Positions 26,977 to 43,798 of a stretch of 64,000 bases of DNA are shown here, piece after piece. The notes under the pieces are model-generated. The model was not told where the DNA came from, did not search any database, and was given only the letters and a program-made list of their open reading frames with translations. The DNA lies in NCBI GenBank assembly GCA_949710005.1, contig OX453273.1:35036750-35100749 (forward strand), in the 5' to 3' direction. A program made the position numbers and the translations under genes. Origin of the DNA: Ricordea florida. Its lineage: Eukaryota > Cnidaria > Anthozoa > Corallimorpharia > Ricordeidae. The stretch's first letter is position 1. The number at the start of each line of letters is the position of its first letter.

Positions 26977-27215
26977 ACAATCCTGGCCAAAAATCCGCGG
27001 GACAGGACACAAAATAGCATTGTCAGTGAACATTTTATTCTGCATATCTTAAACCAGTCTCCTAAATTTTTATTAAGCTGTCTTTGCAATTTTAATAACC
27101 CCCCCCCCTCCCCCCAAACAATGTTGAGAGCAACTGGAATCATTCGGACTGTAGATAAACACAGCATCGTATCAACATTGCATGGGGGAGGGGGGCGTGC
27201 GAACAGTTCGTGATC
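26977..27215. repeat. 280-bp terminal-inverted repeat element, copy 1, left part
   Basis: Starts ACAATCCTGGCCAAAAAT. The element continues at 43799-43837, where it ends ATTTTTGGCCAGGATTGT, the mirrored terminus. The virus-like element 27216-43793 interrupts it. The unbroken sister is at 46835-47120. The ends resemble Tc1/mariner termini in general style (inference). Confidence 0.85.
27211..27215. repeat. Target-site duplication TGATC, left
   Basis: TGATC directly precedes the left TIR and recurs at 43794-43798. The uninterrupted sister repeat has it once, which proves the boundaries. Confidence 0.95.
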
Positions 27216-27555
27216 AGTAGTAGAATACTACCGATTCTAGCGCAATCTTAAAAAATTTAAAAAAAAAATCAATTTCAAAAAATAATCAGAAAAATTATCA
27301 GAAAATTAAAAGAGATTTTCACCAAGAAAAAATGAAATATTAGTTTAAAAGAATAGTTTATAGTATCAAAATGGAACAACTTGTAGAAAAGCTAAAACAA
27401 GCCATAAACGAAAATGATGAAAGTTTAAAAAGACTAATAGTAAATCAGATAAAAAAAATTATTAAAGAAAAAGGTAAAAAGTTGTCTAAAAATGAAATTA
27501 TCAAAGAGTTGCGTAAAATTCCGGAAATTTCTGTAGCTCTTGATAATATGACAGA
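27216..27555. repeat. Left terminal inverted repeat
   Basis: The outer 30 bp match the right end with three differences. Homology then continues through the leader (AGTTTAAAAGAATAGTTTATAGTATCAAA) into about 54 codons of the first gene. Confidence 0.9.
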
Positions 27556-28121
27556 AACACAAGAACAGGTAAAAAGTCAAGAAAGAAATTATGAAAAAGA
27601 GGGTGCAAAACCTAGAAAAAATAATGTTTATAATGAAATAAAAATTAAAAAACATTATTTTTATTACTGTATTCATGGAAGGTATAAATATCACTGTAAA
27701 AAGTGTGGTGGGTCTCAAATATGCGAACACGAACTATATAAGCCGAACTGTAAAAAGTGTGGAGGGTCTCAAATATGTGAACACAATAAGCAAAGATGTG
27801 TTTGCAAAAAGTGTGGGGGGGTCTCAAATATGCAAACATAATAAACAAAAACAACAATGTAAAGAGTGTCATGGTTCTAAAATATGCAAACACAACAGAT
27901 TTAAGGATTATTGTAAAGAGTGTGGAGGTAACCAGATATGTAAACATAAAAAAATTAAGGCGTTTTGTAAAGAGTGTGGAGGGTCTCAAATATGTGAACA
28001 TGATAGAATTAAGTATGCTTGCAAAGAATGTGGTGGATCACAAATATGCGAGCATGGAAAACAAAAACAACAATGTAAGGAATGTAGAATAAAAAAAAAA
28101 AAAAAAAAATATAAATATTAG
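27371..28121 (+). pseudogene. Cys-rich zinc-repeat protein, one frameshift
   Basis: First gene of the left arm. Residues 1-54 are almost identical to the start of the polymerase because both are encoded in the TIR. The rest is about eight repeats of 18 residues, each with the pattern C-x2-C-x6-C-x-H (for example CKKCGGSQICEH), likely small zinc-binding modules. The frame breaks in a 7-G run (27815-27821) between repeats 2 and 3; repeats continue in the next frame to 28121. Similar Cys repeats occur in proteins of large DNA viruses, as I recall. Function unknown; nucleic-acid binding is a guess. The break may be a sequencing error. Confidence 0.7.
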
Positions 28122-28147
28122 TTTAGAGACACAAACCATAAAATAAA

Positions 28148-28681
28148 ATGATGCAAATTGAACTAGAAGAAGTAGACCTGTGGGGGAAAACATCCATTAA
28201 TTTTGAATATTATAATGAAAAAAAAATTAGTGTTAATGATTTTATAGATTTAATTAAGGAAGATTTATTAAAACATATTGCAAAAAATCGTGGTTTTATT
28301 GATGAAGATGAAGAGATTATATTTACAATTTATCATGATAATAGAGAAAAGTGTTTCTTTTTTACTAATGATAGTATAATAGGATTATACTTAGATGGTA
28401 TATCTACTAATAAGTTTGTTAGTGATTTAATATATTATGCTAATGAAGAAGAAAAATATGTTTATGAAGATAAGATGGAATATAATATTAATAATTTTAT
28501 TATTGATATAATTATTATTTCTATAATTATAAATGTTAATAAGTTTGAACATAGAAGCAAATTCTATAAAAAATTGTATGATGAAATAATGGCAACAGCA
28601 TGGCACCCGGATAGATATTTAGATTGGTGTTATTCTAATGATGAGTTAAAACTTTTGAAAGAATTATGGGGCGAAGATTAA
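28148..28681 (+). CDS. Hypothetical viral-element protein, 177 aa
   Basis: Open ATG-to-stop frame preceded by an AT-rich leader (CATAAAATAAAATG). Acidic and Ile/Asn/Tyr-rich, without membrane segments of standard length, although a run of Ile/Val near residues 118-133 (INNFIIDIIIISIIIN) is strongly hydrophobic. Lies between the Cys-repeat gene and a 90-codon gene on the same strand, probably in one expression class. No family recognised. Confidence 0.65.
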   Translation: MMQIELEEVDLWGKTSINFEYYNEKKISVNDFIDLIKEDLLKHIAKNRGFIDEDEEIIFTIYHDNREKCFFFTNDSIIGLYLDGISTNKFVSDLIYYANEEEKYVYEDKMEYNINNFIIDIIIISIIINVNKFEHRSKFYKKLYDEIMATAWHPDRYLDWCYSNDELKLLKELWGED

Positions 28682-28777
28682 TAGAATAAAAAAAAAAAAA
28701 AAGCTTATCTTGTAAGGAATGTAGAATAAAATTAAAAATGAATTACAACTAAAAGATATAAAATATAAAATAAAAAG

Positions 28778-29050
28778 ATGAATAAAGAAGATCAAGAATA
28801 TAAAACTATTAAAATTAGTCCAAGTGATTTAGTAGATTATGCTAAAAAAATGGGAATAAATATGTCTTTTAAAGATGCTAATAACTTATTAAGTAAAACA
28901 AGTAAAGAAAGCAATTTAAAACCTTTAGACCTTGAATATAAAAGAGAAATGAGAGATAAAGCAACTAAATCATTGGGAATAGAAAATGATAATAAGATTA
29001 GTGATGAAGAAATGTTGAAAAAACTAAGTTCAAAAATGAATAAAAAATAA
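28778..29050 (+). CDS. Hypothetical small protein, 90 aa
   Basis: Lys-rich, helical, soluble (KISPSDLVDYAKKMG, later LSSKMNKK). Leader AAAATAAAAAGATG matches other plus-strand genes. A hairpin sequence follows its stop immediately (29051-29087) and separates it from the convergent gene. No family recognised. Confidence 0.6.
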   Translation: MNKEDQEYKTIKISPSDLVDYAKKMGINMSFKDANNLLSKTSKESNLKPLDLEYKREMRDKATKSLGIENDNKISDEEMLKKLSSKMNKK

Positions 29051-29087
29051 TTATGTTATATAACCCAAATAATGGTTACATAACAAA
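29051..29087. terminator. Hairpin between convergent genes, copy 1
   Basis: TTATGTTATATAACC...GGTTACATAA forms an imperfect hairpin directly after the stop of a plus-strand gene and faces a minus-strand gene. A near-identical copy sits in the equivalent place at 34378-34415. Likely a two-way transcript-end signal (inference). Confidence 0.6.
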
Positions 29088-29115
29088 AGACCTGGCGGAC
29101 CAGCTAAGCTGAAAT

Positions 29116-29753
29116 TTATCTGAATCTTAAACTAAAAGTTATGGGAGAACCCTTAAGATCAAGTTTTTTCCATTCATTATCTAATATGGTTAAATCAAAC
29201 TGGTTTATTAGGGTTTCATATTTTCGAACTGGAATTGTTGGATAATCCTTTGAGGGTATGTTTGCAAGTAGGTGAGATGGTGAGAGTTTTACAAGTTCTC
29301 CATTTTTAGTTTTATTAATATATGAAGATTTATTATCAACTATACTACACATAAGTCTAAGTGGTTCCTTAATCTGAATATTTATGGGGTATAATTTACC
29401 TGGATTTATGACTTCAGGAACTCCTAAACCAAACCCCAACCCTCTCGTAAGTTTAATTTTGAAGTTCTTATTTGAATATAGATAGTCAACAGTATCAGTC
29501 TCAATTATTGTTATCTTTTCCCCATCAGGATCATTAAGAAAGATTGATTGAATATTACGAAGAGAATATGTACCGGGTTGAATTATTATGAAGCCTTGAT
29601 TCTTATCATTGAATATTATCTGTTGGTCCTTGAAATTAATTAATCTTTTAGTTTTTATATTGCAATCCAGAAGCTGTATCTCCCGAAGATTTTTTTAAGA
29701 GGAGGATCTAAATAAATTCTAGTTTCTGAATCATACATGGTAATACTTAACAT
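29116..29753 (-). pseudogene. Beta-rich structural-type protein (possible minor capsid/penton), one frameshift
   Basis: ATG at 29753 starts about 20 codons, then the frame breaks in a 7-T run (29690-29696, plus strand); the remaining roughly 190 codons are open to 29116. The sequence is rich in alternating hydrophobic residues and ends with DLTILDNEWKKLDLKG followed by a short beta-type tail, a style I associate with beta-sandwich virion proteins. A single jelly-roll minor capsid protein is expected in this kind of element and has no other candidate, but this is inference. A GC-rich hairpin lies just past its stop. Confidence 0.5.
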
Positions 29754-29817
29754 TTTGTTTTGATTACATCATATTCATCTTTAAATCGGCTACACCATAA
29801 TTTCTATAATCAAAACA

Positions 29818-31368
29818 TTAAAGAAATAGGAACCAAGCTATTGCGCCGCCAAAAACCATAAATACTATCAGATTATCTTCATGTTGAGTTGATTTAATAT
29901 TATTTTCTGGTTTAATTGCATCTGTTTGTGTTTCTTCTTTTTTAATTATAGGTTTTGGTTTTGTTTCGGGTTTATGAGGTAAAGAAACCTTTGAAGATCC
30001 TAAATTATGGTTTATTCCAACAGTTTTTGTTTCGGTATTTAATGCATTATTTACCCCAAAATTCATATCTTCAGTGGCTTTCATGAGTTTGTTATTATAT
30101 CCAACCACGCTCTCTGTATTTATAATCATATTACTTGGCATCAACCAAACGCCAGGAGCGATAGCTAAATCAAGCCTTAATTTAGTTTCCTGAACAGATT
30201 GTTGGTAATTTTGAATAGATTTAGAAATATCATTTTCTATAACGCTACTTTCAAATAGGGCCAAGAATTCTTGTTGTGTTTCTATTGCGCCGCCTCCATT
30301 ACCATAAATTGAGTTTCTAGTATTAACTTGTGACCCCAATATGCAGTAAACAAAAGCTTCAGCGGATCGATTTAATCTACCAAGTCCGGCTTTAGTGAGG
30401 CCATGCCCACTTATTGGGATAAACCAAGCATATTTGAAATCAACAAAGTCATCATTACGGATAAATGAAATGAGATTACCCTTTTCTTTCTTACCACCTT
30501 CATCAGCGAATTTACCACCTTCACCAGGCCATTGATCTGCTTCATGATCATAATTCCTTATAATATGTACATTTTGATAACCGCCTCCTTTTCCATGATA
30601 TCCTGCGCCGTAATCAAGGAATATATCACCCAATCCTCCATTTCTTCCACCTTTCCATCTAAAGTCAGCCGAAGTACTAACACCAAATTCTGCACACAAT
30701 CGTTGATATGCAACTTTACTATATGGATTATTATTTATCACAAAAGGTTGTTCATCGGGTAAAGGTAGTTTCATTTCATATAATATTCGTCTTATTGTGA
30801 AATACACATGAAACTTTATAAAGCTATTAACTACTTTGGGATAATTTAGATTTTCAAAAGGACTTATACCACATCCAGATGTTGCACACCATACCGCAAA
30901 GTTAAGTTGCTGAGGCCAATAATTCATATTTGGTCCATTTAACCATTTTCTACTTTGCTTTCCAAATTTGAATGTTACAACTTGAGATGTAAATATGTTT
31001 CTCATCTTTGCGGTAAATTTCTTCGTATTTGAAACGTATATATCTAGAAAGGTTAGCATTTTTGTTAAATCAGTTGTAAAGTCATCAAAGTTAATAGCCG
31101 GTATAGGATAAGATTGATTGGTTATGGATAAACTCTTTGGAAACGAGCCAACTTTAGGTTTCTTTTCTAACCCTAAATCCCCCCATAATAATGTTTTCAA
31201 ATTAGTAGAAAGATCATCAGTCCATGTTTTTCCAGTAGGATCATCATTTGACATAACTGTTGCCCCATTAACTTTCCATTTAATATATCCCCCATATGAA
31301 TCATTCACAAATGTAAATTTATCAAGGTTGGCGTTTGGGTATTGGGTTTTGAAATCGTCTAATAACAT
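29818..31368 (-). CDS. 516-aa protein with C-terminal membrane anchor
   Basis: ATG at 31368. Large soluble part rich in aromatic residues (KWLNGPNMNYWPQQLNFAVW; SGHGLTKAGLGRLNRSAEAF), then a low-complexity Lys/Pro/Glu region (about residues 440-495) and a final hydrophobic segment, LIVFMVFGGAIAWFLFL, ending at the stop. This is a tail-anchored design. The gene follows capsid-type genes on the late-looking strand, so it may be a virion or membrane-remodelling protein. I recognise no named family. Length and full openness support a real gene. Confidence 0.7.
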   Translation of the reverse strand: MLLDDFKTQYPNANLDKFTFVNDSYGGYIKWKVNGATVMSNDDPTGKTWTDDLSTNLKTLLWGDLGLEKKPKVGSFPKSLSITNQSYPIPAINFDDFTTDLTKMLTFLDIYVSNTKKFTAKMRNIFTSQVVTFKFGKQSRKWLNGPNMNYWPQQLNFAVWCATSGCGISPFENLNYPKVVNSFIKFHVYFTIRRILYEMKLPLPDEQPFVINNNPYSKVAYQRLCAEFGVSTSADFRWKGGRNGGLGDIFLDYGAGYHGKGGGYQNVHIIRNYDHEADQWPGEGGKFADEGGKKEKGNLISFIRNDDFVDFKYAWFIPISGHGLTKAGLGRLNRSAEAFVYCILGSQVNTRNSIYGNGGGAIETQQEFLALFESSVIENDISKSIQNYQQSVQETKLRLDLAIAPGVWLMPSNMIINTESVVGYNNKLMKATEDMNFGVNNALNTETKTVGINHNLGSSKVSLPHKPETKPKPIIKKEETQTDAIKPENNIKSTQHEDNLIVFMVFGGAIAWFLFL

Positions 31369-31529
31369 ATTATTCTTTGTGTTTCAGATAATCTGGTCTT
31401 TAGATTAAGAATAAGATGTAAAGTATTAATATTCACTAGTATTTCTAATGCCTGCAAAACAATTACAACCAACATCAGTTCTCTCGTATGAAATTTTTAA
31501 TGTCCGGGATCGGGCGTAGCCCTCCCCAG

Positions 31530-32141
31530 CTAAGCTGGACCGGTTAATTCTTTTAATAGATCTGCGCGAACTTCTCTCCTTATCTGAGACATGTTTAAGT
31601 TTTTTTCTGTATCTTTCCTAAATTTTTGCCGGATTTCTAGTTTTAGTTTTTGAAACTTTTCCAACTCAACTAAAATTATAGAAAATTCTTGATCGGATAT
31701 AACATTCTCTTTCAAAGCTTTTGAAACCAAGTCGTTAATGGTGTTTAATTTTGATTTTGCAATTGCAGCGGTTTGTTCGTGTTTACTAACTTTATTTGAA
31801 AGTCTTTTTGTTGCATAACCAAATCCAACCGATAATCCTCCAAAAACTCCACCAACAACCCCTAAAGGAACACCAACAACAGCGCCAAAACCAGTAAGAG
31901 AAGTTCCAAGACCGCTTGCAGATAGAATAACTGAAATCAATCCACCACAAACACTTATTTTTGTAAATATTCCTCTAGCTCTATTGTATTTTTTCCTTAC
32001 ATCTTCGTAATGTTTAATTTCTCTCTCAAGATTTTGTAATACTTCGCTTGATTTTTGCAGTCTGAAATTAACCGTATGAAGGGAGGAACTTGGATCAACA
32101 TTATTAGGTAGTTGAGGATAAATTTTATTATAGTCATCCAT
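31530..32141 (-). CDS. 203-aa protein with hydrophobic Gly-rich core
   Basis: ATG at 32141. Helical charged N-terminus, then a Gly/Val/Ser-rich hydrophobic stretch (about residues 60-108, containing GLISVILSASGLG and GVPLGVVGGVFGGLSVGFG) that can form a membrane hairpin, then coiled-coil-prone C-terminus. Its stop codon lies in a GC-rich hairpin (31520-31545). AAAGAT motif upstream. I have the impression that relatives occur in cnidarian genomes. Function unknown; membrane insertion is likely. Confidence 0.65.
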   Translation of the reverse strand: MDDYNKIYPQLPNNVDPSSSLHTVNFRLQKSSEVLQNLEREIKHYEDVRKKYNRARGIFTKISVCGGLISVILSASGLGTSLTGFGAVVGVPLGVVGGVFGGLSVGFGYATKRLSNKVSKHEQTAAIAKSKLNTINDLVSKALKENVISDQEFSIILVELEKFQKLKLEIRQKFRKDTEKNLNMSQIRREVRADLLKELTGPA

Positions 32142-32176
32142 ATTGTATTTTACTGATCACCGTGATATCTTTAGAT

Positions 32177-33430
32177 CTACTTTCTCTTCTTTTTTATACT
32201 TTCCACAAAATATAGAACAACAGCCATTATCAAAAGCCAAGCATTCTTACCTAAAAATCCAATGACCTCGCCAGCTGTTTTGAAAAGAAAGCTAACTATT
32301 GCACCAACCATTCCAGGTAATATTTCGCCTAGTTTCTTGCCAATAGCTTTAAAACCATTACCAACTCCTTTTCCCAGTGTGGATAGACCTTTTGAAATAT
32401 TAGAAATGATAACTGAAATAACTGCGGCCACTGCACTTACAACAGCAAAGACTGTAAAACCATACTTTTTAAAGATGTACTTTATACGCTCTCGTAATGG
32501 TAGATTTTTAAGTATTTCATCTTTTCTTCTCTCAATATCTGATATTTTTTCTTCACTTAAGATTATATTCTTTCTCGATAGTTCTCTTAATTTTTCAACC
32601 TCAGATCTTAATCGTTCATTACTGCGTTCTAACATTGTTAAATTAGATTTACCACTTTTATATTTATCTATTTCCTCTTTGTATAATTTTGTTTCATCCA
32701 AAAGTTTCTCACTTTGTATTTTTAATTCTATATTCTGTTTAACTGTTTCATCAAAAAGACTTTTATTTTCAGCTTTTTCCACTTGTTGTTTCTCAATGAA
32801 TTCGCGAAGTTCTTTTTCTTTTTCTTGATATAGACCAATCTCCTGTTTATTTGCATCTAAGACGGTAAATAACCCTTTTAATGTATTTTCTAATTCCCTA
32901 TTTTTTTGACTTTCTTCATTTAATTGTTTTACAGATTCATTATATCTTTCCAACATGCTTTCATAATCAGCACCCAGTTCTTTTCTAAAGGTTATTGGTA
33001 ACTTATCAAGCAAAATTTTCCCATCTTTATCAACCAATATATGTGATACATTATCACTCCTACCAGTTAATTTTCCGATTAAACTACCATCTTCTCCAAA
33101 TGTTACATTAAATGTCCTATCATTGGGATTGTAATTTGGAAAATAACGTTTGAGCTGTTCCCCAGATTCTCTCCTTCTATCATATTCCCAATCTCTTTCC
33201 TTAGAAACATAACTCAGTTTACTACCTTCTTCAACCTGTTTAACCCATTCAGCCCGTCCCCTTACTTCATCTTTATATTCATCATAACCAGGATAATCTT
33301 GATCAATTAGACTAGTTGTGGATGATAATGGATTCATTTCCATATTTTCTCTATCAACATCACCATTATCTTTTGGTTCATTTAGTCCGGTTGGATCTAA
33401 ACCAGGTAATTCTTCTCCTCCTTCTGCCAT
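32177..33430 (-). CDS. 417-aa coiled-coil protein with C-terminal membrane segments
   Basis: ATG at 33430. Acidic N-terminus, long coiled coil (about residues 155-305, Glu/Lys-rich heptads), one hydrophobic segment (FAVVSAVAAVISVIIS), a Gly-rich amphipathic linker (KGVGNGFKAIGKKLGE) and two further hydrophobic segments ending LLIMAVVLYFVESIKKKRK. Preceded by CTAAAGATTTCTTACTGATG. Spaced 35 bp from the next gene. Could be an internal virion or membrane protein; no named family recognised. Confidence 0.7.
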   Translation of the reverse strand: MAEGGEELPGLDPTGLNEPKDNGDVDRENMEMNPLSSTTSLIDQDYPGYDEYKDEVRGRAEWVKQVEEGSKLSYVSKERDWEYDRRRESGEQLKRYFPNYNPNDRTFNVTFGEDGSLIGKLTGRSDNVSHILVDKDGKILLDKLPITFRKELGADYESMLERYNESVKQLNEESQKNRELENTLKGLFTVLDANKQEIGLYQEKEKELREFIEKQQVEKAENKSLFDETVKQNIELKIQSEKLLDETKLYKEEIDKYKSGKSNLTMLERSNERLRSEVEKLRELSRKNIILSEEKISDIERRKDEILKNLPLRERIKYIFKKYGFTVFAVVSAVAAVISVIISNISKGLSTLGKGVGNGFKAIGKKLGEILPGMVGAIVSFLFKTAGEVIGFLGKNAWLLIMAVVLYFVESIKKKRK

Positions 33431-33528
33431 GATTTTTTACTCATCAGTAAGAAATCTTTAGATCTAAAGTTATTTTGAAATTATAAAATTGATTTTAAAA
33501 AATAAAAAAACTAAAAAAATAAAATAAA

Positions 33529-34338
33529 ATGTCTAATGAAAACACACAATTAATAAATGTTAACAATTATAATCCCAAAGAACGCATGATTTTTTCTGAC
33601 CCAATTCCAGGGGAAATTCCCAATAGCAAACCAAAGATTGAATTCAAAAGAATAAACATTTTTACAAAAAATGAAGATGGAACCGAAGGAGAACTTGTTA
33701 TTCCAACCGGTCGTTTGTATTCGTATGGAGTTTATGAAAATCGAAGCCTAGAAACCAAAAAAATTATAGGATATAATTTTCCTTTGTGTTTATGGAGTAG
33801 AGATAAACCCACACCTGAAGAGGAAAAATGGATTGATACCTTTAACGAAATAGTTGAGTGCTGTATCAATCATCTGGTAGATAATCGAGAAGAAATTGAC
33901 AGATTTGAATTAGAGCGGACTGACCTTACTAAAACCAAGGGTGGTTTAAATCCACTGTATTGGAAAATGGAAAAAATTACAGATGAAAAAAACAAAACTT
34001 TTCTTCGGAGAGTTCCTGGCCGTGGTCCAACACTATATGCAAAATTAATTTTCTCCAAAAGACAAGACAAATTTCTTACCAAATTTTATAATATAAAAGA
34101 TGATGAATTAATAGAAATTGAAGATTTAATGAATAAAGGTTGCTATGCAAATTGTGCAATCAAAATTGAATCAATATTTATTGGAGCTTGTATTTCTCTT
34201 CAGGTAAAGCTTTATGAAGCGTATGTTGAACCAAATATTGAAATTAAAAAATTATTAACCCGCCCAAAATATAATCCTGAAGTAATTATTTCTAAGAGTA
34301 ATGCAGCTGCTTATTTTATGGAAGATGATCTAGATTAA
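33529..34338 (+). CDS. 269-aa protein, possible single-stranded DNA-binding protein
   Basis: The only plus-strand gene in the middle of the element; leader AAAATAAAATG like the left-arm genes. Well-mixed soluble sequence with conserved-looking blocks (YGVYENRSLETKKIIGYNF, PLCLWS, PTPEEEKWIDTF, then IKIESIFIGACISLQVKLYEA). The layout reminds me of SSB-like proteins of large DNA viruses, and the strand groups it with replication genes; both points are inference. A convergent hairpin (34378-34415) follows. Confidence 0.6.
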   Translation: MSNENTQLINVNNYNPKERMIFSDPIPGEIPNSKPKIEFKRINIFTKNEDGTEGELVIPTGRLYSYGVYENRSLETKKIIGYNFPLCLWSRDKPTPEEEKWIDTFNEIVECCINHLVDNREEIDRFELERTDLTKTKGGLNPLYWKMEKITDEKNKTFLRRVPGRGPTLYAKLIFSKRQDKFLTKFYNIKDDELIEIEDLMNKGCYANCAIKIESIFIGACISLQVKLYEAYVEPNIEIKKLLTRPKYNPEVIISKSNAAAYFMEDDLD

Positions 34339-34377
34339 GATTCTGGAAGCCTTATGTGAACTTAATAAGAAATGGAA

Positions 34378-34415
34378 TTATGTTATATAACCTAATTACT
34401 GGTTACATAACAAAA
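34378..34415. terminator. Hairpin between convergent genes, copy 2
   Basis: TTATGTTATATAACC...GGTTACATAA, differing from 29051-29087 at three loop positions. Lies between the plus-strand 269-aa gene and the minus-strand 130-aa gene. Confidence 0.6.
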
Positions 34416-34433
34416 TAATGTGATATTTATGAT

Positions 34434-34826: not shown

Positions 34827-34831
34827 GTTTC

Positions 34832-35138: not shown

Positions 35139-35195
35139 GATTTTTTACTACATCAGTAAGAAATCTTTAGACCCCTTTAGGGTTTAAAAATAAAA

Positions 35196-35705: not shown

Positions 35706-35741
35706 TATTTTACATATCATTAAGAAATCTTTAAATCATGC

Positions 35742-36308: not shown

Positions 36309-36333
36309 CTTTTGTGATAATATATTGATTGCT

Positions 36334-36960
36334 TTAAACGACTTCAGGAATCTCTAAATAACATTGAAATGGAAATCTTAAACATAAACATAGTCTAGAA
36401 TATTTTTCTTTTTTCAATATTTCCACAAATTTTTTACTAGTTTCAGAGTCTAAATCTGCTCCATAATCTTCGAAAAACATCTTCATTCCTTTTTGCGATG
36501 GATTATGGAAAGTAACAACGCAGGCAACATTTTCACGGAATGGTTTTGCTATTGATGTTAATTGCTGAGTGAGAACCCACACTGATAAACCATGATGCCT
36601 TCCAGAAAATGCTAAATCTATAAACTTGTTTGATCTTTTCTTCAGGTCATTCGAAACAGCGCAATCATCTAAAATTATTAGTGTATTTGTTCCGGAGAAT
36701 AAAGTTTGACAATCAGTTAATAACTCATTAATCTCATCAACGTTACTAGCATCTGGTGATAATACATAGAAATGTTTATCTTTATTAGCAAAATTATGAT
36801 ATGTTTTATTTTTAGCATAAGTTGGACATATTAAAACAATGAATTCAAACAATTTTCGGAATGGCCCTCGGAGTTGATCAATTATGTACTTTGTCTTTCC
36901 ACAATTTGTTGGGCCTGTTATAATACAATGAAAAGGAATTTTATCTCGTAATTCTTCCAT
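36334..36960 (-). CDS. FtsK/HerA-type DNA-packaging ATPase (A32-like)
   Basis: Pumps viral DNA into preformed capsids using ATP. Walker A GPTNCGKT at residues 16-23; Walker B TLIILDDCA near residues 92-100; then FSGRHHGLSVWVLTQQ, the motif 3/sensor block typical of poxvirus A32-like ATPases. 208 residues is a usual length for Polinton ATPases. Its neighbour is the capsid gene, as in many such elements. Fully open, ATG at 36960. Confidence 0.9.
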   Translation of the reverse strand: MEELRDKIPFHCIITGPTNCGKTKYIIDQLRGPFRKLFEFIVLICPTYAKNKTYHNFANKDKHFYVLSPDASNVDEINELLTDCQTLFSGTNTLIILDDCAVSNDLKKRSNKFIDLAFSGRHHGLSVWVLTQQLTSIAKPFRENVACVVTFHNPSQKGMKMFFEDYGADLDSETSKKFVEILKKEKYSRLCLCLRFPFQCYLEIPEVV

Positions 36961-36969
36961 CTTTTTTCC

Positions 36970-37030
36970 TTCGGGTCTTTCTTTTAACTAAGTTCTTCCC
37001 TTTCCGGCTTCGCCGGGGAGAGCTTTGCTC
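36970..37030. terminator. GC-rich hairpin after the capsid gene
   Basis: CCGGCTTCGCCGG followed by GAGAGCTTTGCTC, directly downstream (on the minus strand) of the 417-aa capsid-type gene. A likely transcript-end hairpin. Confidence 0.5.
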
Positions 37031-37035
37031 GATGG

Positions 37036-38289
37036 TCAGTACATGATTGATCTTAAGTTTGAATTCATAACCTCCATTAATGCATCAGCTACAACAAACA
37101 TGTAACAAGTCATAATACCAGAACCAATAGCTATTCTTTTAATTTCTATTTTTATGCCGTCTTGTGCGTTGTTTAATGCCAGACCTCCTCCATGAATGCT
37201 ATTATCTGGGTGAGTTCTCAAATCGATCCACAGAGCAAACTTATTACTATAAAAATTCTTTTCCTTTACCGACCAGCGGGAGGAACCAGACCGGTGGGAA
37301 GAATCACTGAAACGTTTCTTTATTGATTCCCAAAGATCTGACGGCACCATTCCTTTTGAGTAGAAACGATTTGGAACACCATTAACATCGATATTGATTG
37401 AAGTGATACCTGGATTGAAAAAATTCTCAGAATCTCGTGCTCCACCGACGTATGGTAATATAAACAAACATAATATACCTGTAATTGACCTTCTCGGTAG
37501 ATTAATATGCTGGTTTATAACACTATCAGTAGGTCTGGATATGGTGAAAGTTTTGTGTAGAGTAACATTCTCATAAAAGAATCCTTTACCAACCTTATAA
37601 GCTGCTTGTGCCTCACGAGCTAAGTATTCGCTTGATATACAAGAATATTCCAACTCAAGGTTTGTGATTTTATAAGTTGGAGTCTTTGTTGTATCTGAAT
37701 AAACAACAATATCGTGAATTGGAGCTAGTGTAATCTCAAATATTAGTTGATGATCTAATGCCTTTGGGTAGAAAACCCCATGATCGTTTAGAATAGGATG
37801 GTTTAGTGGGATGTGGTACTTGGTGTTGTGTACTACTGCAAGTGCTACTTCCTTTGCATCTGTGTCTACTTTATCACCCGCATTTGTCCTGAGTTTCCTC
37901 ATGTTTACAGAAGAAATACCTTGCCTTAATCCATCCTCTCTTTCTTCATCTGTTAAGAATAAGTCGTGGTATGTTTGAAATAGATCGTATCTTTGTGTAT
38001 CCTGTAGTGTTTCACCTCCAAAAAGAACCCTGAGTCTGGAAACAAGGTTACTACCTACATTATTCACTAGGGTGTTATCTTCATGCCCCTCAACAGTCAA
38101 TTTAAATACTAGATATACACTTCCAGGAACAATCACTAAATTTTCAGAAAGTTTTGGAATATTTATGTATAGAGTTTCTCCAGGATTGGCTGATGACGGG
38201 TTTAGTGTAATTCTATTCAATGTTGATTCCGCTTTCAAACCTAGTGGTACTCTCGGAATCCTGTTTGGATTAATTTTTTCAGACGTCAT
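37036..38289 (-). CDS. Probable double jelly-roll major capsid protein
   Basis: 417 codons, ATG at 38289, fully open. Beta-rich throughout with the flow expected of a double jelly-roll: an N-terminal barrel (NIPKLSENLVIVPGSVYLVF, LVSRLRVLFGGE), a middle loop region, and a C-terminal barrel (ITSINIDVNGVPNRFYSKGM, FALWIDLRTHPDNSIHGGG, GIKIEIKRIA). The last pattern (acidic-Arg, then a His-Gly-Gly turn) resembles capsid C-termini of Polinton-like viruses. Neighbours (ATPase, small membrane proteins) fit a virion module. Shorter than typical Polinton capsid proteins. Leader TTTAAAGATTAACCAAAGT. Assignment rests on pattern and context, not on a search. Confidence 0.65.
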   Translation of the reverse strand: MTSEKINPNRIPRVPLGLKAESTLNRITLNPSSANPGETLYINIPKLSENLVIVPGSVYLVFKLTVEGHEDNTLVNNVGSNLVSRLRVLFGGETLQDTQRYDLFQTYHDLFLTDEEREDGLRQGISSVNMRKLRTNAGDKVDTDAKEVALAVVHNTKYHIPLNHPILNDHGVFYPKALDHQLIFEITLAPIHDIVVYSDTTKTPTYKITNLELEYSCISSEYLAREAQAAYKVGKGFFYENVTLHKTFTISRPTDSVINQHINLPRRSITGILCLFILPYVGGARDSENFFNPGITSINIDVNGVPNRFYSKGMVPSDLWESIKKRFSDSSHRSGSSRWSVKEKNFYSNKFALWIDLRTHPDNSIHGGGLALNNAQDGIKIEIKRIAIGSGIMTCYMFVVADALMEVMNSNLRSIMY

Positions 38290-38311
38290 ATTGATTTATA
38301 AGATACTTTGG

Positions 38312-38521
38312 TTAATCTTTAAACCTCTTAGGCGTCTGAATTGGTATTTTTTTATTCTCTAATTCTTCAATATCTTTTACTAAACTTTCTCTTACTCCTT
38401 CAATTACAAGCATAAGATTAAAAAGTTCATCGCCATCTTTCATATTGTTAATTTTTGAAATTATAATTTTTTTCATCATATTAATTTGATATTCACTAAA
38501 TTTTATTTTTTCTTCCCCCAT
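38312..38521 (-). CDS. Small helical protein, 69 aa
   Basis: ATG at 38521; helical and charged (QINMMKKIIISKINNMKDG). Shares a 34-bp intergenic region with the divergent integrase gene; the leader TTTAAAGATTAACCAAATT is almost the same as that of the capsid gene. No family recognised. Confidence 0.5.
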   Translation of the reverse strand: MGEEKIKFSEYQINMMKKIIISKINNMKDGDELFNLMLVIEGVRESLVKDIEELENKKIPIQTPKRFKD

Positions 38522-38556
38522 TTTTAATTTATAAGATAATTTGGTTAATCTTTAAA
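38522..38556. promoter_or_regulatory. Divergent leader between 69-aa gene and integrase
   Basis: Only about 34 bp separate two divergent start codons. On the minus strand it reads TTTAAAGATTAACCAAATTA, the same motif as upstream of the capsid gene at 38292-38325. Confidence 0.45.
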
Positions 38557-39548
38557 TGAGTAACGGAAACATACTTTCAAAGATATATTATTCAACTGAA
38601 GGATATTGGAAAGGATATTCTGCAATTCCTAAATTAGCTGAAAAGGCAAAGGTTAGTGAAAATGAGGCAAAACAATGGCTTCAGAAACAAGCAATATGGC
38701 AAATATATCTTCCATCTCCCAAATATATACCCAGGCCACACTGGACTGCGGATAAACCTAATCAGATTCACCAAGCAGATTTATTATTTTTACCGCATGA
38801 TAGAGTTGGAAGAAAAACATATAGATATGCATTAGTTGTGGTTGATGTTGCCTCGAGATATAAAGATGCAGAGCCATTAACCTCAAAAGAAAGTCGTGAG
38901 ATATCTAAAGCTTTTGAAAAAATATATTCGAGAAGAATGAAATATCCTAAAACATTAATGGTTGATCCGGGAAAAGAATTTATGGGCGAGGTTTCCAAAC
39001 TTATGAATTACCATAATGTTAGAATACAAAGAAGTGAAGCCGGTAATCATAGAGCTCAAGCATTTGTTGAAAGAGCAAATAGAATATTAGGCGAAAGATT
39101 ATTTAGTCATCAATATGCACAGGAAATGATCAGTTATGATCGATCGCGGGTATGGGTTAAAAGATTACCTAATATTCTAAAAACTTTGAATAATACACCA
39201 ACCAGATTAACTGATAAAGAGCCCGATAAGGCTATAAAAATGAAAGAGGTTGATATTGAAACTAAAAGGTATAACCGGGTTGTTGGTCTTGATGAGGTTA
39301 GATTACCTCCTAGTGTTAAAGTTAGATATCTATTATCTCCCGGTGAACTTGAAGGTGGTGAAAAAAGACGAGCTACTGATCCTATTTGGAGTATCAAAGT
39401 TTATGATATTTCTAGAAGTGTGATTTCACCCAATCAGCCAGTTTTATATTATTTAGTGGATGGACCTAGACGGAGTTTTGTAAGGGAAGAATTACAGATT
39501 ATTCCTTATGATACAGAACTTCCACCGGATTCTGTTTTGAAACGATAA
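38556..39548 (+). CDS. Retroviral-type DDE integrase
   Basis: Inserts the element DNA and generates the 5-bp TSD. Residues 1-65 form a helical N-terminal domain. The rve core has Asp75 (HQADLLFL), Asp137 (LMVDPGKEF) and Glu172 (AFVERANRI), i.e. an intact DDE triad with 34 residues between the last two. The C-terminal third (VKVRYLLSPGELE, then RRSFVREELQII) looks like an SH3-type DNA-binding tail; no chromodomain seen. 330 residues, within the range of Polinton integrases. Its 3' end overlaps the end of the polymerase gene on the other strand by 43 bp. Confidence 0.92.
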   Translation: MSNGNILSKIYYSTEGYWKGYSAIPKLAEKAKVSENEAKQWLQKQAIWQIYLPSPKYIPRPHWTADKPNQIHQADLLFLPHDRVGRKTYRYALVVVDVASRYKDAEPLTSKESREISKAFEKIYSRRMKYPKTLMVDPGKEFMGEVSKLMNYHNVRIQRSEAGNHRAQAFVERANRILGERLFSHQYAQEMISYDRSRVWVKRLPNILKTLNNTPTRLTDKEPDKAIKMKEVDIETKRYNRVVGLDEVRLPPSVKVRYLLSPGELEGGEKRRATDPIWSIKVYDISRSVISPNQPVLYYLVDGPRRSFVREELQIIPYDTELPPDSVLKR

Positions 39549-42500
39549 TGGCCCATTGCATAAGTATGTATTTTATCCTCATGAATAATTCTCTTATCAT
39601 CATCAGCAGATAGAGCAACTTTATTAACAGTTTCTGAAAAAACATCATGCTGATGACTTCTTAATACATTCATCGTCTTCATCTGTGGCTCTTTATTTAA
39701 TAAACAATCCTTATAATTATAAAAGCTTATTGTCTTTTCTACTACTGCCTTCTTAATTCCCTTACATTTCTTTTCTTCTTTACCTTCATCCATCCTGTAT
39801 GAATAAAGCTTGGCTCGCAGGCCCACAAATTCAGCTATCTGCTTACCGCCAGCTTCATCTTTAAACATATTGATGACTTTCTTATTCACACCAGTCTCGA
39901 TTCCAGATGGATGGTTTTTAGGATAATTACTGGTGTCAAACATTTCTCTCACATCAGGGCTTATATCTTTATAGAAATCTAGAGTTTCTATTTCATATGC
40001 AAGACTATCCGTATCTGTAAAAAGCAATTTAGCCATTTCACCATATTTTGGTTTGATATAGTTATAGTGAAATTTAAACATTGTTGTTTTACTTAGATCT
40101 AGAATGCACATGCCTAAATAAACGGGTTTATTGAATACTAACTTTGTTTTCTTCATGTGGATTGCTATAAGATTTTCACAAAAGATATTGCGATGATTAT
40201 AATTTGGTTTAGTTATTAATTTTTTAGCCTCTTTTTGATTTGTAACTAATCTAATGTCTACCCTATTTCTAATGTTTTCCATTGTTTTACCAAATACAGA
40301 GTTATTCATTAACTTGAAGAAATCTTTTTCAAAGTCGTTATTCGCTTTTGATCTTAGATTAGTATTCAAGTCAATATATGGTTTTAACCAAGCAGACTCT
40401 TTAAATGTAATACCCCTATGAATCTTTGTTATTTTTAATCCCAAACTTTCATAAAGTTTTAGTGTTTCATGATGAACAACATATTTTTCCTTATTGTTTA
40501 GGTTTGGGATTAATTTCTCCACCTTATTAACAACAAGCCTCTCTGGAGCTAGAGGATAATCATTATGTAAATCATGTAGGTGATGCGGATATTCTAAATC
40601 AACCTCTATTATACATGGTATATTTTTCCAGTCTGTAAGATCTTTATCAGACATCCATCTAAAATCATGAGTAGGTAGTGGGTTACTCATTGCTCCTCCA
40701 TATAAATTATTTGCGTCATGATATTGTATATACTTTATTGGTAGTTTTGGATCATATTTACTCATGTATGGATTGTTTGCTTCACCATATCTAGTAGAGA
40801 TCATAGATACACCACCTCTAATACCTTTCTCAAACATAAGCAGCATGTCGATGTCGGTTAGTAACTCCAAATTCACTTTCGTTAACTTTAATGTTGCATC
40901 CCAAGATAGTCCTGGTGCTGTATAATAGTGTGCGGGATCTAAACCATAATTCTTTTGACAAACATCTCTAAAGTTCTCGAATACATCCGCTAAAAGTAGT
41001 ACATCCGACTCAAGATATAGGTCGTGATATTCCCTCATTGTTTTCATATTGAAGGTTTCCCATACCTTTTCAGCGTGTTTATAATCATCATCAGAAATAT
41101 CTTTACCGTTAAGTTTTGAATAAAATGCATCCTTTGGCGGCAGTTGTGTTTCGTTGAGTTTATCTAATCCATCAAACCAATCATATGGATATACACCCTT
41201 TCTCAACAATAACTTTAATTCTTCACCTTTATAGAAAATATTTAAGTTTTTGAAAGATTCTTTTGGTAGATTAGTTACTAATTTATCCAGACTTGTTGAC
41301 ATAAATTTAAATGAATCTATGAATCTAATATCTCGCTTCACCTCAACCCGATTACCTTCTTTATTTATAAATGTATCAACCACAATCTGTTTTGTGAAAG
41401 AAATATACTTTTCCTCATTATTAGGTATACATTTTATTTTACCTTCTGTTGTTCCAAGATTCTTTATAAAAAGATGGGCGTCATATCCAGATAGGTTGTG
41501 AAATATTACAGGGAAGAACTTTGGAATCTTATAATTTAAGTTACATTCGTTATGAGACGCTCCTCTATACTTTCCTGTAAGGTGGCAGTGATCTATTACC
41601 TTATCTTCTCCCAATTCATATTCACAAATGTGGCAATGTGTAGCAAAATTATATCTTATTTTATCGTTTCTAGTCATATTAACTTTCTTTTTATATTTAA
41701 AATTATTGTAAATTTCCCTAATATCCGACTCTAAATTATTTATAAATATCTGTGGGATATCATCATCTGAGGATTTGGCTGTGTATTTTCTAATAACAGT
41801 TTCATAATTTTCATCAAAAAACTTTATTAAATAACAATAACCTGATGGTTTATGTTTCTGGTATTGATTAGTAGAGCTTTTACTTTTATCTGGAGAGCAG
41901 GTGTTTATTTTCTCTGTAATGCATTCAAAGTCTGCGTATACAACAAATGGTACTCGCATTTTTCTATTATAATTATTGAATTTAATATACTTAGGATTTC
42001 CATCTTTATCTTTTGGCATATCAATCTTGACTTCTTTGTTTGTGGCGCAATATTCAAGATGTTTTTCCAATGATTTTTCTGTTGGGAAAGAGTTGTAACA
42101 TCTACGACAAAATTCACGTTTGTGTTGATTATTATTTATTTGTGATGATACAAGTCTACTAAAATTCTTTATCCAACAGTAGTGGTGATTTCCTTCATCA
42201 TTCGATATTAGAATTAATTCAATCAAATAACCGTTTTGTTTATTACTTATTCTCAGAGGGTATACTTCGCCTTTATCTTTATCATATCCATGGACATTAA
42301 TCGTATAATAGGGATTTTGCTTTTCAAACTTATCAATATGTTTCCATTTAACTGGGAACTCCATTCCTGACCAGTCAAACTTCTCAGAGTTCTCTCTCAT
42401 TTGTTTATTTAGTCTTTGTGGATCTTTCTCTTTTGGAAACGCGGCGGAAGTTACTGCCCACTTGAAACATTCATTATCATTCATATTCTTAACGTTTATA

Positions 42501-43405
42501 ATTGCTTTCTTGGATTCTAATTTTAGTGGTAATGGAATATAGGAACTTCCAGAAATAGGTTCATAGGGATCGATGTTAATATCAAAGTATTCCACCCGGT
42601 CGAATTGCCATCCAGAACCTTGATTTTGAAACTGTTCAATCAATTCAAGTTGGCGATTTGTCATTATATTGAATAATTCAGAAAAATCAGTTGACTCTGT
42701 TATGATTTTCATATTTGAATGAAAGTATCCTGAATTTTCATCAATCAGACCAGTATCAGGATTCTTTTTTATGAATTTACAGGTAAAGATGAACTTGATT
42801 TTGATAGACTTCTTTTTCTGATTAATTAGATCTATAACTTTTGGTTTGATTTTATTGATAAATGTCTTTGGGTCGTACCCTTTTTGTCCATCTATCCTAT
42901 ATGTTTTCAGATATCCTCTCAATGCTGTTTGTTTTTCTTTTGGAGCGAGACGTTTGCTTGATATGCGTTTGGAAACCAGTCTTTTTAAAGTGAATATTCT
43001 GTTAACCTTTTCCTTCAAACCATCAACTCGTTTGTTTACAGTCTTTTTGATAGGTTCTGGGATATAAGATAGTATCCAATCTGCAAACTTGTTAATCTCT
43101 TTATTTATCGGTTTGACAACTTTTCTTGATAAATTTTTAAGTGATATGGGTTGGGAAGGTTTGATAATGGGAATATTAATCTCAGGAACTGGTTCATCTA
43201 TAATTAATCTTTTTGGTTTGTTTTTCATATTATCAAAAGCTTCAGCAATTTCCGGAATTTTACGCAACTCTTTGATAATTTCATTTTTAGACAATTTTTT
43301 ACCTTTTTCTTTAATAATTTTTTTTATCTGATTTACTATTAGTCTTTTTAAACTTTCGCCATTTTCGTTTATGGCTTGTTTTATCTGTTCTACAAGTTGT
43401 TCCAT
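39506..43405 (-). CDS. Family B DNA polymerase (protein-primed type)
   Basis: Replicates the element; 1299 residues, ATG at 43405, fully open. Residues 1-54 come from the TIR and are shared with the Cys-repeat gene. A C2H2-like motif (CRRCYNSFPTEKSLEKHLEY) precedes the exonuclease: ExoI YADFEC (about 490), ExoII NLSGYDAH (about 635), ExoIII YLESDVLLLAD. Between ExoI and ExoII is a CHICEYELG...HCHLTG...CNLNYK cluster like that of endonuclease VII zinc sites. Polymerase motifs: A DANNLYGG (about 900), B NNSVFGKT (about 1030), C FTDTDSLAYE (about 1130). Long insertions agree with protein-primed PolB. The gene occupies the right arm and starts inside the TIR. Confidence 0.95.
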   Translation of the reverse strand: MEQLVEQIKQAINENGESLKRLIVNQIKKIIKEKGKKLSKNEIIKELRKIPEIAEAFDNMKNKPKRLIIDEPVPEINIPIIKPSQPISLKNLSRKVVKPINKEINKFADWILSYIPEPIKKTVNKRVDGLKEKVNRIFTLKRLVSKRISSKRLAPKEKQTALRGYLKTYRIDGQKGYDPKTFINKIKPKVIDLINQKKKSIKIKFIFTCKFIKKNPDTGLIDENSGYFHSNMKIITESTDFSELFNIMTNRQLELIEQFQNQGSGWQFDRVEYFDINIDPYEPISGSSYIPLPLKLESKKAIINVKNMNDNECFKWAVTSAAFPKEKDPQRLNKQMRENSEKFDWSGMEFPVKWKHIDKFEKQNPYYTINVHGYDKDKGEVYPLRISNKQNGYLIELILISNDEGNHHYCWIKNFSRLVSSQINNNQHKREFCRRCYNSFPTEKSLEKHLEYCATNKEVKIDMPKDKDGNPKYIKFNNYNRKMRVPFVVYADFECITEKINTCSPDKSKSSTNQYQKHKPSGYCYLIKFFDENYETVIRKYTAKSSDDDIPQIFINNLESDIREIYNNFKYKKKVNMTRNDKIRYNFATHCHICEYELGEDKVIDHCHLTGKYRGASHNECNLNYKIPKFFPVIFHNLSGYDAHLFIKNLGTTEGKIKCIPNNEEKYISFTKQIVVDTFINKEGNRVEVKRDIRFIDSFKFMSTSLDKLVTNLPKESFKNLNIFYKGEELKLLLRKGVYPYDWFDGLDKLNETQLPPKDAFYSKLNGKDISDDDYKHAEKVWETFNMKTMREYHDLYLESDVLLLADVFENFRDVCQKNYGLDPAHYYTAPGLSWDATLKLTKVNLELLTDIDMLLMFEKGIRGGVSMISTRYGEANNPYMSKYDPKLPIKYIQYHDANNLYGGAMSNPLPTHDFRWMSDKDLTDWKNIPCIIEVDLEYPHHLHDLHNDYPLAPERLVVNKVEKLIPNLNNKEKYVVHHETLKLYESLGLKITKIHRGITFKESAWLKPYIDLNTNLRSKANNDFEKDFFKLMNNSVFGKTMENIRNRVDIRLVTNQKEAKKLITKPNYNHRNIFCENLIAIHMKKTKLVFNKPVYLGMCILDLSKTTMFKFHYNYIKPKYGEMAKLLFTDTDSLAYEIETLDFYKDISPDVREMFDTSNYPKNHPSGIETGVNKKVINMFKDEAGGKQIAEFVGLRAKLYSYRMDEGKEEKKCKGIKKAVVEKTISFYNYKDCLLNKEPQMKTMNVLRSHQHDVFSETVNKVALSADDDKRIIHEDKIHTYAMGHYRFKTESGGSSVS

Positions 43406-43793
43406 TTTGATACTATAAACTATTCTTTTAAACTAATATTTAATTTTTTTTTTTTCTTTAATTTTGAAAATTTCGCTAGAATCAACAATTTTTTTTTTCT
43501 TTAATTTTTTAAAATTGATTTTTTAAAATTTTTTTTAAAATTTCGCTAGAATCAACAATTTTTTTTTCTTTAATTTTTTAAAATTGATTTTTTTAAATTT
43601 TTTTTTAAAATTTTTTTAAAGTTGCGCTAGAATCAACAATTTTTTTTTTTCTTTAATTTTTTAAAATTGATTTTTTTAAAATTTTTTTTAAAATTTCGCT
43701 AGAATCAACAATTTTTTTTTTCTTTAATTTTTTAAAATTGATTTTTTTAAAATTTTTTTAAAGTTGCGCTAGAGTCGGTAATATTCTACTACT
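43245..43793. repeat. Right terminal inverted repeat, expanded
   Basis: Mirrors the left TIR but is about 200 bp longer because of 70-81-bp tandem repeats at 43455-43793. It includes the first 54 codons of the polymerase gene. Confidence 0.9.
43455..43793. repeat. Subterminal tandem repeat, 70-81-bp units
   Basis: CGCTAGA starts at 43474, 43544, 43625, 43697 and (terminal copy, CGCTAGAGTCGG) 43767, i.e. spacings of 70, 81, 72 and 70. Units contain poly-T tracts and TTTAAAATTGATT. The left end has only one unit. Confidence 0.85.
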
Positions 43794-43798
43794 TGATC
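43794..43798. repeat. Target-site duplication TGATC, right
   Basis: Second copy of the 5-bp duplication, directly after the right TIR (…CTACTACT). Confidence 0.95.

What the first reader, a model, noticed from the sequence alone, without database searches (positions are those of the whole stretch)
27211..43798. Nearly intact Polinton-like virus with proven boundaries and its own empty site 3 kb away
Seen: TIRs AGTAGTAGAATA..., a TGATC duplication, and an unbroken sister repeat (46835-47120) that reads GTTCGTGATCAAATTTGC straight through the insertion point. This fixes the element to the base (27216-43793). Known: PolB + DDE integrase + A32-like ATPase + jelly-roll capsid define Polintons/adintoviruses. 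Inference: with most frames open and only two homopolymer breaks, the element may be young and possibly still able to move or form particles. It carries a set of proteins I cannot assign and lacks a recognisable protease.
Basis: partly seen in the sequence, partly recalled or inferred. Interest (0 to 1): 0.9.

Follow-up and report, generated by a model that had tools for sequence, protein, structure and literature searches.

The report
Nearly intact Polinton virus in genome
A 16.6-kb virus-like element of the Polinton/Maverick kind sits in this eukaryotic-looking DNA with its two ends and its target site readable to the base; such elements are known, so this is a well-preserved new example rather than a new kind of thing.

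Summary
Bases 27216-43793 (16,578 bp) are one inserted element. Its ends read (AGT)2//(ACT)2, it is flanked by a 5-bp TGATC duplication, and a second, unbroken copy of the repeat it landed in (46835-47120) has a single TGATC at that point. By gene content it is a Polinton/Maverick: protein-primed-type PolB with vOTU-like, exonuclease and polymerase motifs, RVE integrase, A32-type packaging ATPase and a capsid protein matching Pfam Capsid_N exactly at its cut-off. No adenain-type protease was found. I add four things. (1) One unassigned protein is DUF2738 (E 5e-61), possibly a single-strand-binding protein. (2) A minor-capsid candidate is frame-broken at 29690-29696, a Cys-repeat gene at 27815-27821; 15 of the 17 genes on my list are open. 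(3) The terminal repeats carry a shared promoter region and about 53 first codons of both terminal genes. (4) The two host repeats differ by 1 substitution in 278 columns, so the insertion is probably recent although its own terminal repeats differ by 3-15%. The 'empty site' is a sister copy, not the allele. Host, copy number and activity could not be tested: the homology database was off and the genome server did not complete.

The parts
27216..43793 (.). whole inserted element, 16,578 bp
   Evidence: junctions, TSD and unbroken sister repeat
27211..27215 (+). left target-site duplication TGATC
43794..43798 (+). right target-site duplication TGATC
27216..27551 (+). left terminal inverted repeat (about 336 nt), ending inside the first gene
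   Evidence: blastn against the reverse complement of the right end, 84.8% (outer) and 85.5% (inner) identity
43225..43793 (-). right terminal inverted repeat (about 569 nt, longer by an array of about 4.3 copies of a 70-nt unit at 43462-43773)
27371..28121 (+). Cys-rich repeat gene (CxxCxG..xxCxH units), frame-broken at the G-run 27815-27821; ORFs 27371-27841 and 27675-28121
   Evidence: no Pfam family above cut-off for either piece
28148..28681 (+). 177-aa protein, unassigned
28778..29050 (+). 90-aa ORF, unassigned (not scanned against families)
29116..29768 (-). candidate minor capsid protein (penton), frame-broken at the T-run 29690-29696; pieces 29116-29694 and 29655-29768
   Evidence: ORFs; no convincing Pfam hit for either piece; assignment by size and end motif only, inference
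29818..31368 (-). 516-aa protein with a C-terminal hydrophobic segment; perhaps a virion protein, unassigned
31530..32141 (-). 203-aa protein with a Gly-rich hydrophobic segment, unassigned
32177..33430 (-). 417-aa protein, coiled-coil-like by eye, with C-terminal hydrophobic segments, unassigned
33529..34338 (+). DUF2738 protein (269 aa, acidic C terminus); possible single-strand DNA-binding protein
   Evidence: PF10927 E 5.2e-61, 206 bits; function inferred; AlphaFold model unusable
34434..34826 (-). 130-aa protein, unassigned
34920..35138 (-). 72-aa ORF, unassigned
35196..35720 (-). 174-aa protein with a hydrophobic segment, unassigned
35742..36308 (-). 188-aa protein, unassigned
36334..36960 (-). 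A32/FtsK-type genome-packaging ATPase (208 aa)
   Evidence: Pox_A32 E 5.5e-12; PRD1 P9 is the best of 9 phage proteins for the window+L003 pair, E 1.7e-5
37036..38289 (-). major capsid protein (417 aa)
   Evidence: Pfam Capsid_N 24.0 bits, cut-off 24, E 3.4e-5; N-terminal piece alone 25.1 bits
38312..38521 (-). 69-aa ORF, unassigned
38556..39548 (+). RVE (DDE) integrase, 330 aa; likely triad D75, D137, E172
   Evidence: rve E 1.4e-9; motif positions, triad by eye
39506..43405 (-). protein-primed-type PolB, 1299 aa, with putative N-terminal terminal-protein region, vOTU-like pair (C313/H408), endonuclease VII-like zinc insert, exonuclease and polymerase motifs
26977..27215 (+). left part of host repeat R1, the target
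43794..43837 (+). right part of host repeat R1
46835..47120 (+). uninterrupted sister repeat R2 (286 bp, 18-nt perfect inverted ends)

Best explanation
An endogenous Polinton/Maverick (class Polintoviricetes). SHOWN: one 16.6-kb linear insert with Maverick-type ends, a 5-bp duplication, and genes matching PolB, RVE integrase, packaging ATPase and (at the cut-off) a capsid protein, most of them open. INFERRED from these families: the linear genome is copied by protein priming. The N-terminal region of PolB supplies the terminal protein that primes at the (AGT)2 ends, whose repeated triplet would let the primer jump back (analogy with adenovirus, recalled). The vOTU-like domain (C313/H408) then frees the primer protein, and DUF2738 may coat the displaced strand. 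The integrase joins the ends to host DNA 5 bp apart. The MCP, a minor capsid protein and the ATPase would build and fill a virion; without an adenain-type protease the particle would mature without that cleavage. The terminal repeats reach into both terminal genes, so PolB and the Cys-repeat protein would be made from the same promoter and share their first ~53 residues. The copy landed in a repeat that may belong to an older Rep-encoding element.
For: Junctions and sister repeat. End motif equals the commonest one of vertebrate Mavericks (PMC8097293 section 7); length 16,578 bp against a published mean of 16,862 for intact vertebrate ones (same section). rve, Pox_A32 and Capsid_N profiles. 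PolB is 38% identical over residues 113-1287 to that of an environmental contig, with exonuclease and polymerase motifs, the vOTU-like Cys/His and the zinc ligands kept. For the exonuclease+polymerase part of that pair, the two best of 9 phage proteins are the protein-primed polymerases of PRD1 and phi29, with polymerase motifs B and C aligned to phi29. PolB and INT are convergent and overlapping here and in L003. Shared leader: 43 of 45 nt upstream identical, 5 differences in 159 nt of coding.
Against: Capsid_N score sits exactly on its cut-off (L003's MCP is below it, 14.4 bits) and the structure prediction failed (mean pLDDT 35). No Pfam DNA polymerase B family matched PolB, whole or in four pieces; hhalign scores to PRD1/phi29 are weak on their own (E 0.0011 and 0.014; probability 20.6 and 3.1). 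The minor capsid assignment is by inspection only, and it lies about 7 kb from the MCP, whereas Polinton pentons are typically next to it or one gene away (PMC4028283 section 5). Two genes are broken. No test of expression, copy number or virions was possible.
Confidence: 0.9

Rival explanations
1. It is no longer a virus but a decaying or transposon-like form: PolB and integrase move it, and the capsid module is a relic, as indicated by the broken minor-capsid candidate and the missing protease.
For: Frame break in the only minor-capsid candidate; no protease hit; terminal repeats 3-15% different. Polintons span a continuum from virus to transposon (PMC4028283 section 4).
Against: MCP, ATPase and 8 other minus-strand ORFs are open, including 516 and 417 aa. 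Both breaks sit in homopolymer runs, which sequencing errors or very recent mutations also hit. The host repeat pair is nearly identical, leaving little time for decay.
Confidence: 0.25
2. It is a chimera: Polinton replication/integration genes joined to a capsid module of the giant-virus/PLV side (NCLDV-type MCP, DUF2738, Cys-rich repeats), as in the 'meldvirus' mixtures.
For: Against L003 the PolB, INT and ATPase are clearly homologous (hhalign E 2e-140, 4.7e-9, 1.2e-8) while MCP, minor capsid and the rest are not (MCP E 0.011). Cnidarian MCPs were the only metazoan ones outside the Maverick-Polinton cluster (PMC10120064 section 9; that the host here is cnidarian is untested). PolB/Integrase paired with larger-virus-like virion genes has been described (PMC11071296 passages).
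Against: Polinton MCPs diverge strongly, so lack of detectable similarity is weak evidence. No capsid tree could be made because the protein database was off. L003 is one contig of unknown host.
Confidence: 0.35
3. The frame break in the minor-capsid candidate is programmed ribosomal slippage rather than damage.
For: The break lies in a run of seven A on the coding strand. Possible slippery sites near the 3' end of adintovirus penton genes have been noted (PMC11071296 passages).
Against: The site is near the 5' end, not the 3' end; no downstream structure was tested; indels in homopolymers are common sequencing and replication errors.
Confidence: 0.1

Closest known systems
Polintons/Mavericks (Polintoviricetes), incl. 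cnidarian Polintons (Hydra, Nematostella) and stony-coral polintoviruses
   Same: PolB with vOTU-like motifs, RVE integrase, A32/FtsK ATPase, candidate MCP, TIRs with (AGT)2//(ACT)2 ends, about 17 kb, duplication within the 5-6-bp range
   Different: no adenain-type protease recognised (PRO was identifiable in 74% of 72 Polintons, PMC4028283 section 4); 5-bp duplication where intact vertebrate Mavericks have 6 bp; carries DUF2738 and a Cys-repeat gene sharing promoter region and leader with PolB (whether other Polintons do was not tested)
Adintoviruses (alpha/beta)
   Same: PolB with OTU-like motifs and RVE integrase
   Different: hexon not comparable here; no Pfam chromodomain on the integrase; no adenain found
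Polinton-like viruses (PLV, sensu Yutin et al. 2015)
   Same: no protease; MCP candidate and A32-like ATPase; the environmental relative L003 shares PolB/INT/ATPase
   Different: PLVs mostly lack pPolB and RVE integrase; this has both
Mavirus-type virophages
   Same: pPolB plus RVE integrase
   Different: mavirus pPolB lost most of its exonuclease domain (PMC11071308 passages); here exonuclease motifs are present

Membership tests
Polinton/Maverick | protein-primed PolB with vOTU, exonuclease and palm motifs | tested here: met
   motifs and 38% identity to L003 PolB; PRD1 and phi29 polymerases rank first and second of 9; but no Pfam PolB hit
Polinton/Maverick | RVE-type integrase | tested here: met
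   rve E 1.4e-9 above cut-off; D75/D137/E172 by eye (positions)
Polinton/Maverick | terminal inverted repeats with conserved end motif | tested here: met
   (AGT)2//(ACT)2 (motif from PMC8097293 section 7)
Polinton/Maverick | 6-bp target-site duplication (intact vertebrate Mavericks) | tested here: not met
   5 bp if the ends are symmetrical; 5-6 bp is the range given for Maverick-Polinton elements in PMC8547959 (passage), so not disqualifying
Polinton/Maverick | packaging ATPase | tested here: met
   Pox_A32 E 5.5e-12; PRD1 P9 best of 9
Polinton/Maverick | double jelly-roll major capsid protein | tested here: inconclusive
   Capsid_N at its cut-off, E 3.4e-5, N-terminal piece 25.1 bits; AlphaFold failed
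Polinton/Maverick | single jelly-roll minor capsid protein | tested here: inconclusive
   candidate 29116-29768, no profile hit
Polinton/Maverick | adenain-type protease (frequent, not universal) | tested here: not met
   no such hit in Pfam scans of 16 translations; the ORFs of 90, 72 and 69 aa were not scanned in Pfam
Adintovirus | hexon recognisable by BLASTP to adintovirus hexons | not testable with these tools
   no reference hexons at hand; homology database off
Adintovirus | integrase with C-terminal chromodomain | tested here: not met
   no chromodomain in Pfam scan of the integrase; a divergent one is not excluded
PLV (Yutin 2015) | lacks the pPolB + RVE integrase pair | tested here: not met
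   both present

The most novel reading that the evidence does not exclude
A protease-free Polinton lineage in which an NCLDV/PLV-type capsid module with its own SSB-like DUF2738 protein is driven by Maverick PolB/integrase, and in which the terminal repeats work as a mirrored expression cassette: both terminal genes (DNA polymerase and a Cys-repeat zinc protein) get the same promoter and the same ~53-residue leader. The terminal repeats were already unequal in the virus before integration, and the element is a recent arrival nested in the end of a Rep element.
Probability: 0.25. Interest if true: 0.5.

Novelty: new member of a known kind. Interest (0 to 1): 0.35.

Why it matters
Nearly intact endogenous Polintons with base-exact ends are good material for asking whether these 'transposons' still make virions. 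This copy adds a case with no recognised maturation protease, a likely recent insertion dated by a repeat pair, and a simple testable idea: that terminal repeats hand one promoter and one leader peptide to two genes. Polintons in animals, cnidarians included, are already described in print, so it extends rather than opens the subject.

Tried and rejected
Homology search of the large protein database with the MCP and the 516-aa protein: switched off. Scans of IMG/VR with MCP, DUF2738, PolB and ATPase single sequences: no relatives. A degenerate PolB motif B pattern: 0 matches; a motif A pattern: 2 contigs, of which L001 shows no PolB match and looks phage-like by eye, and L002/L003 is a real relative. 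tblastn in phage records with MCP, DUF2738 and PolB: no match. PDB sequence search: nothing convincing for MCP, 516-aa protein, PolB, integrase, DUF2738 or ATPase. PHROGs (10 proteins) and NCBIfam (9 proteins): no informative family except IS481/IS3-type transposase similarity of the integrase, below cut-off. AlphaFold of DUF2738 (pLDDT 31) and of the MCP with the L003 MCP (pLDDT 35) failed, so no fold search was run. Rfam: 0 matches. hhalign of the MCP pair against 9 phage proteins (PRD1 P3 was cut and not included): nothing.

Considered and rejected: that the repeat pair is chance; that the long ORFs are chance; that it is a PLV in the strict sense (PolB and RVE integrase present); that the Cys-repeat protein has a relative in the flanks (one match at 12653-12958, E 0.003, 27%, overlaps the zinc region of a reverse-transcriptase frame and is taken as compositional). 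Against the idea that R1 and R2 are the two ends of one Rep element: a local alignment of their 120-nt inner flanks scored no better than shuffles (246 of 300 shuffles reached it), only the first 9 nt match (8 of 9), no duplication is seen outside R1 and R2, and the hairpin fold of R2 (-48.2 kcal/mol) had no shuffled control.
Full report
CHECK OF THE OBSERVATION. The junctions are as stated. On the left, host ...GTTCGTGATC is followed by AGTAGTAGAATACTACC; on the right...GGTAATATTCTACTACT is followed by TGATCAAATTTGC. The uninterrupted repeat at 46835-47120 carries GTTCGTGATCAAATTTGC once. Joining the flanks and aligning them with the sister copy gives a full-length match with one substitution and a length difference in a C/T run; blastn counts 1 mismatch and 8 gaps in 248 columns on the left and 44 of 44 identical on the right. 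The element is therefore 27216-43793, 16,578 bp, with a TGATC duplication. GC is 0.26-0.35 in 2-kb windows inside it and 0.39-0.43 in the few kb next to it, although other parts of the window fall to 0.32. Seventeen listed ORFs (the two pieces of the Cys-repeat gene counted apart, the minor-capsid candidate not included) cover 87.0% of it. As genes I count 17 (Cys-repeat gene as one, minor-capsid candidate added); 15 are open and 2 are broken.

ENDS. The termini are (AGT)2//(ACT)2, the commonest end motif of intact vertebrate Mavericks, whose mean length is 16,862 bp and mean TIR 402 bp (PMC8097293, section 7 read). Those Mavericks have 6-bp duplications (passage); this one has 5 bp if the ends are symmetrical, within the 5-6 bp given for Maverick-Polinton elements in PMC8547959 (passage). 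The left repeat is about 336 nt, the right about 569 nt; the right is longer because of about 4.3 copies of a 70-nt unit.

A SHARED PROMOTER REGION AND LEADER. The terminal repeats run past the start codons of both terminal genes. The 45 nt before the two ATGs match at 43 positions, and the first 53 codons differ at 5 of 159 nt (4 codons, 3 of them amino-acid changes). So the DNA polymerase (right end) and the Cys-repeat protein (left end) begin with nearly the same ~53 residues and should have the same promoter; no promoter was tested. The environmental relative's PolB is mostly gapped against this stretch. I found no account of such an arrangement, but only one search was aimed at it (0 papers holding all five terms).

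GENES. PolB, 1299 aa (39506-43405, -): exonuclease motifs YADFE and HNLSGYDAH, polymerase motifs DANNLYG, KLMNNSVFGK and TDTDS, and a putative vOTU pair C313/H408 are conserved with the PolB of contig L003 but for single residues; the names of these motifs are recalled, and the vOTU idea follows PMC11071308 (section 9 read). An endonuclease VII-like zinc stretch at 577-623 passes its Pfam cut-off (23.7 against 23.6 bits) and is also seen, below cut-off, in L003. Against the PolB reading, no Pfam polymerase family matched, whole or in four pieces. With the pair of PolBs as query, PRD1 and phi29 polymerases rank first and second of 9 phage proteins, weakly (E 0.0011 and 0.014). Integrase: rve E 1.4e-9, likely triad D75/D137/E172 (positions). 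ATPase: Pox_A32 E 5.5e-12; PRD1 P9 first of 9 (E 1.7e-5). MCP: Capsid_N 24.0 bits at a cut-off of 24, 25.1 with the N-terminal piece. DUF2738: E 5.2e-61.

MINOR CAPSID AND PROTEASE. Between 29116 and 29768 on the minus strand two overlapping open pieces (192 and 37 codons) meet at a run of seven T (plus strand) at 29690-29696. By its size and its ends I take this for the minor capsid gene; neither piece gave a convincing Pfam match, the longer piece does not match the 280-aa candidate of L003, and its distance from the MCP is unlike most Polintons (PMC4028283 section 5), so this is inference. No adenain-type protease was seen in Pfam scans of the 16 translations given (the 90-, 72- and 69-aa ORFs were not scanned there). 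Protease was identifiable in 74% of 72 Polintons (PMC4028283 section 4), so its absence is unusual but known. The vOTU domain in PolB is a different protease, thought to free the terminal protein.

DUF2738. This family is enriched in two Hydra genomes (21 and 12 against 0-1 in the other five species of that table row; PMC7642931 passage), which would fit carriage by mobile elements in cnidarians. Its acidic C terminus (...MEDDLD) and the presence of T7-type single-strand-binding proteins in several Nucleocytoviricota families (PMC11253617 passage) make a single-strand-binding role plausible for a strand-displacing replicon; that DUF2738 equals that family is a guess, and the model I ran was unusable (mean pLDDT 31).

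RELATIVE. L003 (IMG/VR 3300028392_002905; 15,936 of 17,398 bases held; no host name) has PolB 38% identical over residues 113-1287, integrase 24% and ATPase 21%, with PolB and integrase convergent and overlapping as here. Of the pairwise profile comparisons of 19 window proteins or pieces with 11 L003 proteins, only those three are clear; MCP against MCP is fourth (E 0.011). So the replication-integration block and the ATPase are shared while the capsid genes have diverged beyond detection or differ in origin.

AGE. The target repeat R1 and its sister R2 are the only two copies in the window apart from a 22-nt match of the C-run, lie in the same orientation, have 18-nt perfect inverted ends and bracket 3.0 kb holding a 471-codon open frame similar to papillomavirus E1 and parvovirus NS1 helicases (23.4 and 18.5 bits, both below cut-off). 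Their inner flanks start with the same CTGAATNTG in inverted orientation (8 of 9 nt), but beyond that a 120-nt comparison is no better than shuffles (246 of 300 reach its score), and no duplication flanks the pair outside. R1 and R2 may be the ends of one Rep-encoding element or two copies of a small repeat family; both are inference. They differ by 1 of 278 compared columns, less than the Polinton's own repeats (5 of 159 in the shared codons, p 0.026; 10 of 77 in the outer part, p 1.3e-6; Fisher tests, uncorrected). Since the Polinton entered after R1 existed, the insertion is probably recent and much of the terminal-repeat difference was probably present in the virus before integration. Caveats: gene conversion between R1 and R2, and fast change in AT-rich tracts (the comparison counted substitutions only).

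HOST. Not established. The flanks contain reverse transcriptases, a THAP domain and a possible DDE remnant. My impression that several proteins resemble unnamed proteins of corals and Hydra is recalled and comes from no call.

WHAT IS KNOWN. Polinton MCPs and pentons were described in 2014, including Hydra and Nematostella elements (PMC4028283, passages, sections 4-5). In a network of MCPs the cnidarian ones were the only metazoan ones outside the Maverick-Polinton cluster (PMC10120064 section 9). PLVs differ by mostly lacking pPolB and RVE integrase (PMC4642659 passages). [quoted passage not shown] the paper is not held. The element is therefore a new member of a known kind. Its special points are the missing protease, the shared leader and the nearly identical repeat pair that dates the insertion.

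Noticed in passing
45252-46667 (-), between repeats 26977-43837 and 46835-47120: A 471-codon frame with SF3-helicase similarity (PPV_E1_C, Parvo_NS1, both below cut-off) and, by eye, an HUH-like N terminus, bracketed by two 286-bp repeats with inverted ends: possibly an integrated Rep-encoding element whose left end is the Polinton's target; the evidence for that is mixed.
   Followed up: partly
44180-44560 (+): Possible remnant of a DDE transposase (DDE_3, below cut-off) inside the same 3.0-kb segment.
   Followed up: no
5208-6056 (+) and 23358-24245 (-): Two reverse-transcriptase frames, nearly identical by eye, in opposite orientation about 18 kb apart.
   Followed up: no
12386-17237 (-): A LINE-like element: an ORF1-like frame (296 codons) and endonuclease/RT/zinc frames of 868 and 392 codons.
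   Followed up: no
52238-52705 (+): THAP-domain frame (E 8.9e-21).
   Followed up: no
43462-43773: Array of about 4.3 copies of a 70-nt AT-rich unit with GCTAGAATCAAC cores in the right terminal repeat; the left repeat aligns to about one such unit.
   Followed up: partly
L003:5165-6934: The environmental relative encodes a 589-aa protein with tandem TYTxxxTDTxLxxK-type repeats (by eye), fibre-like, next to its MCP.
   Followed up: no
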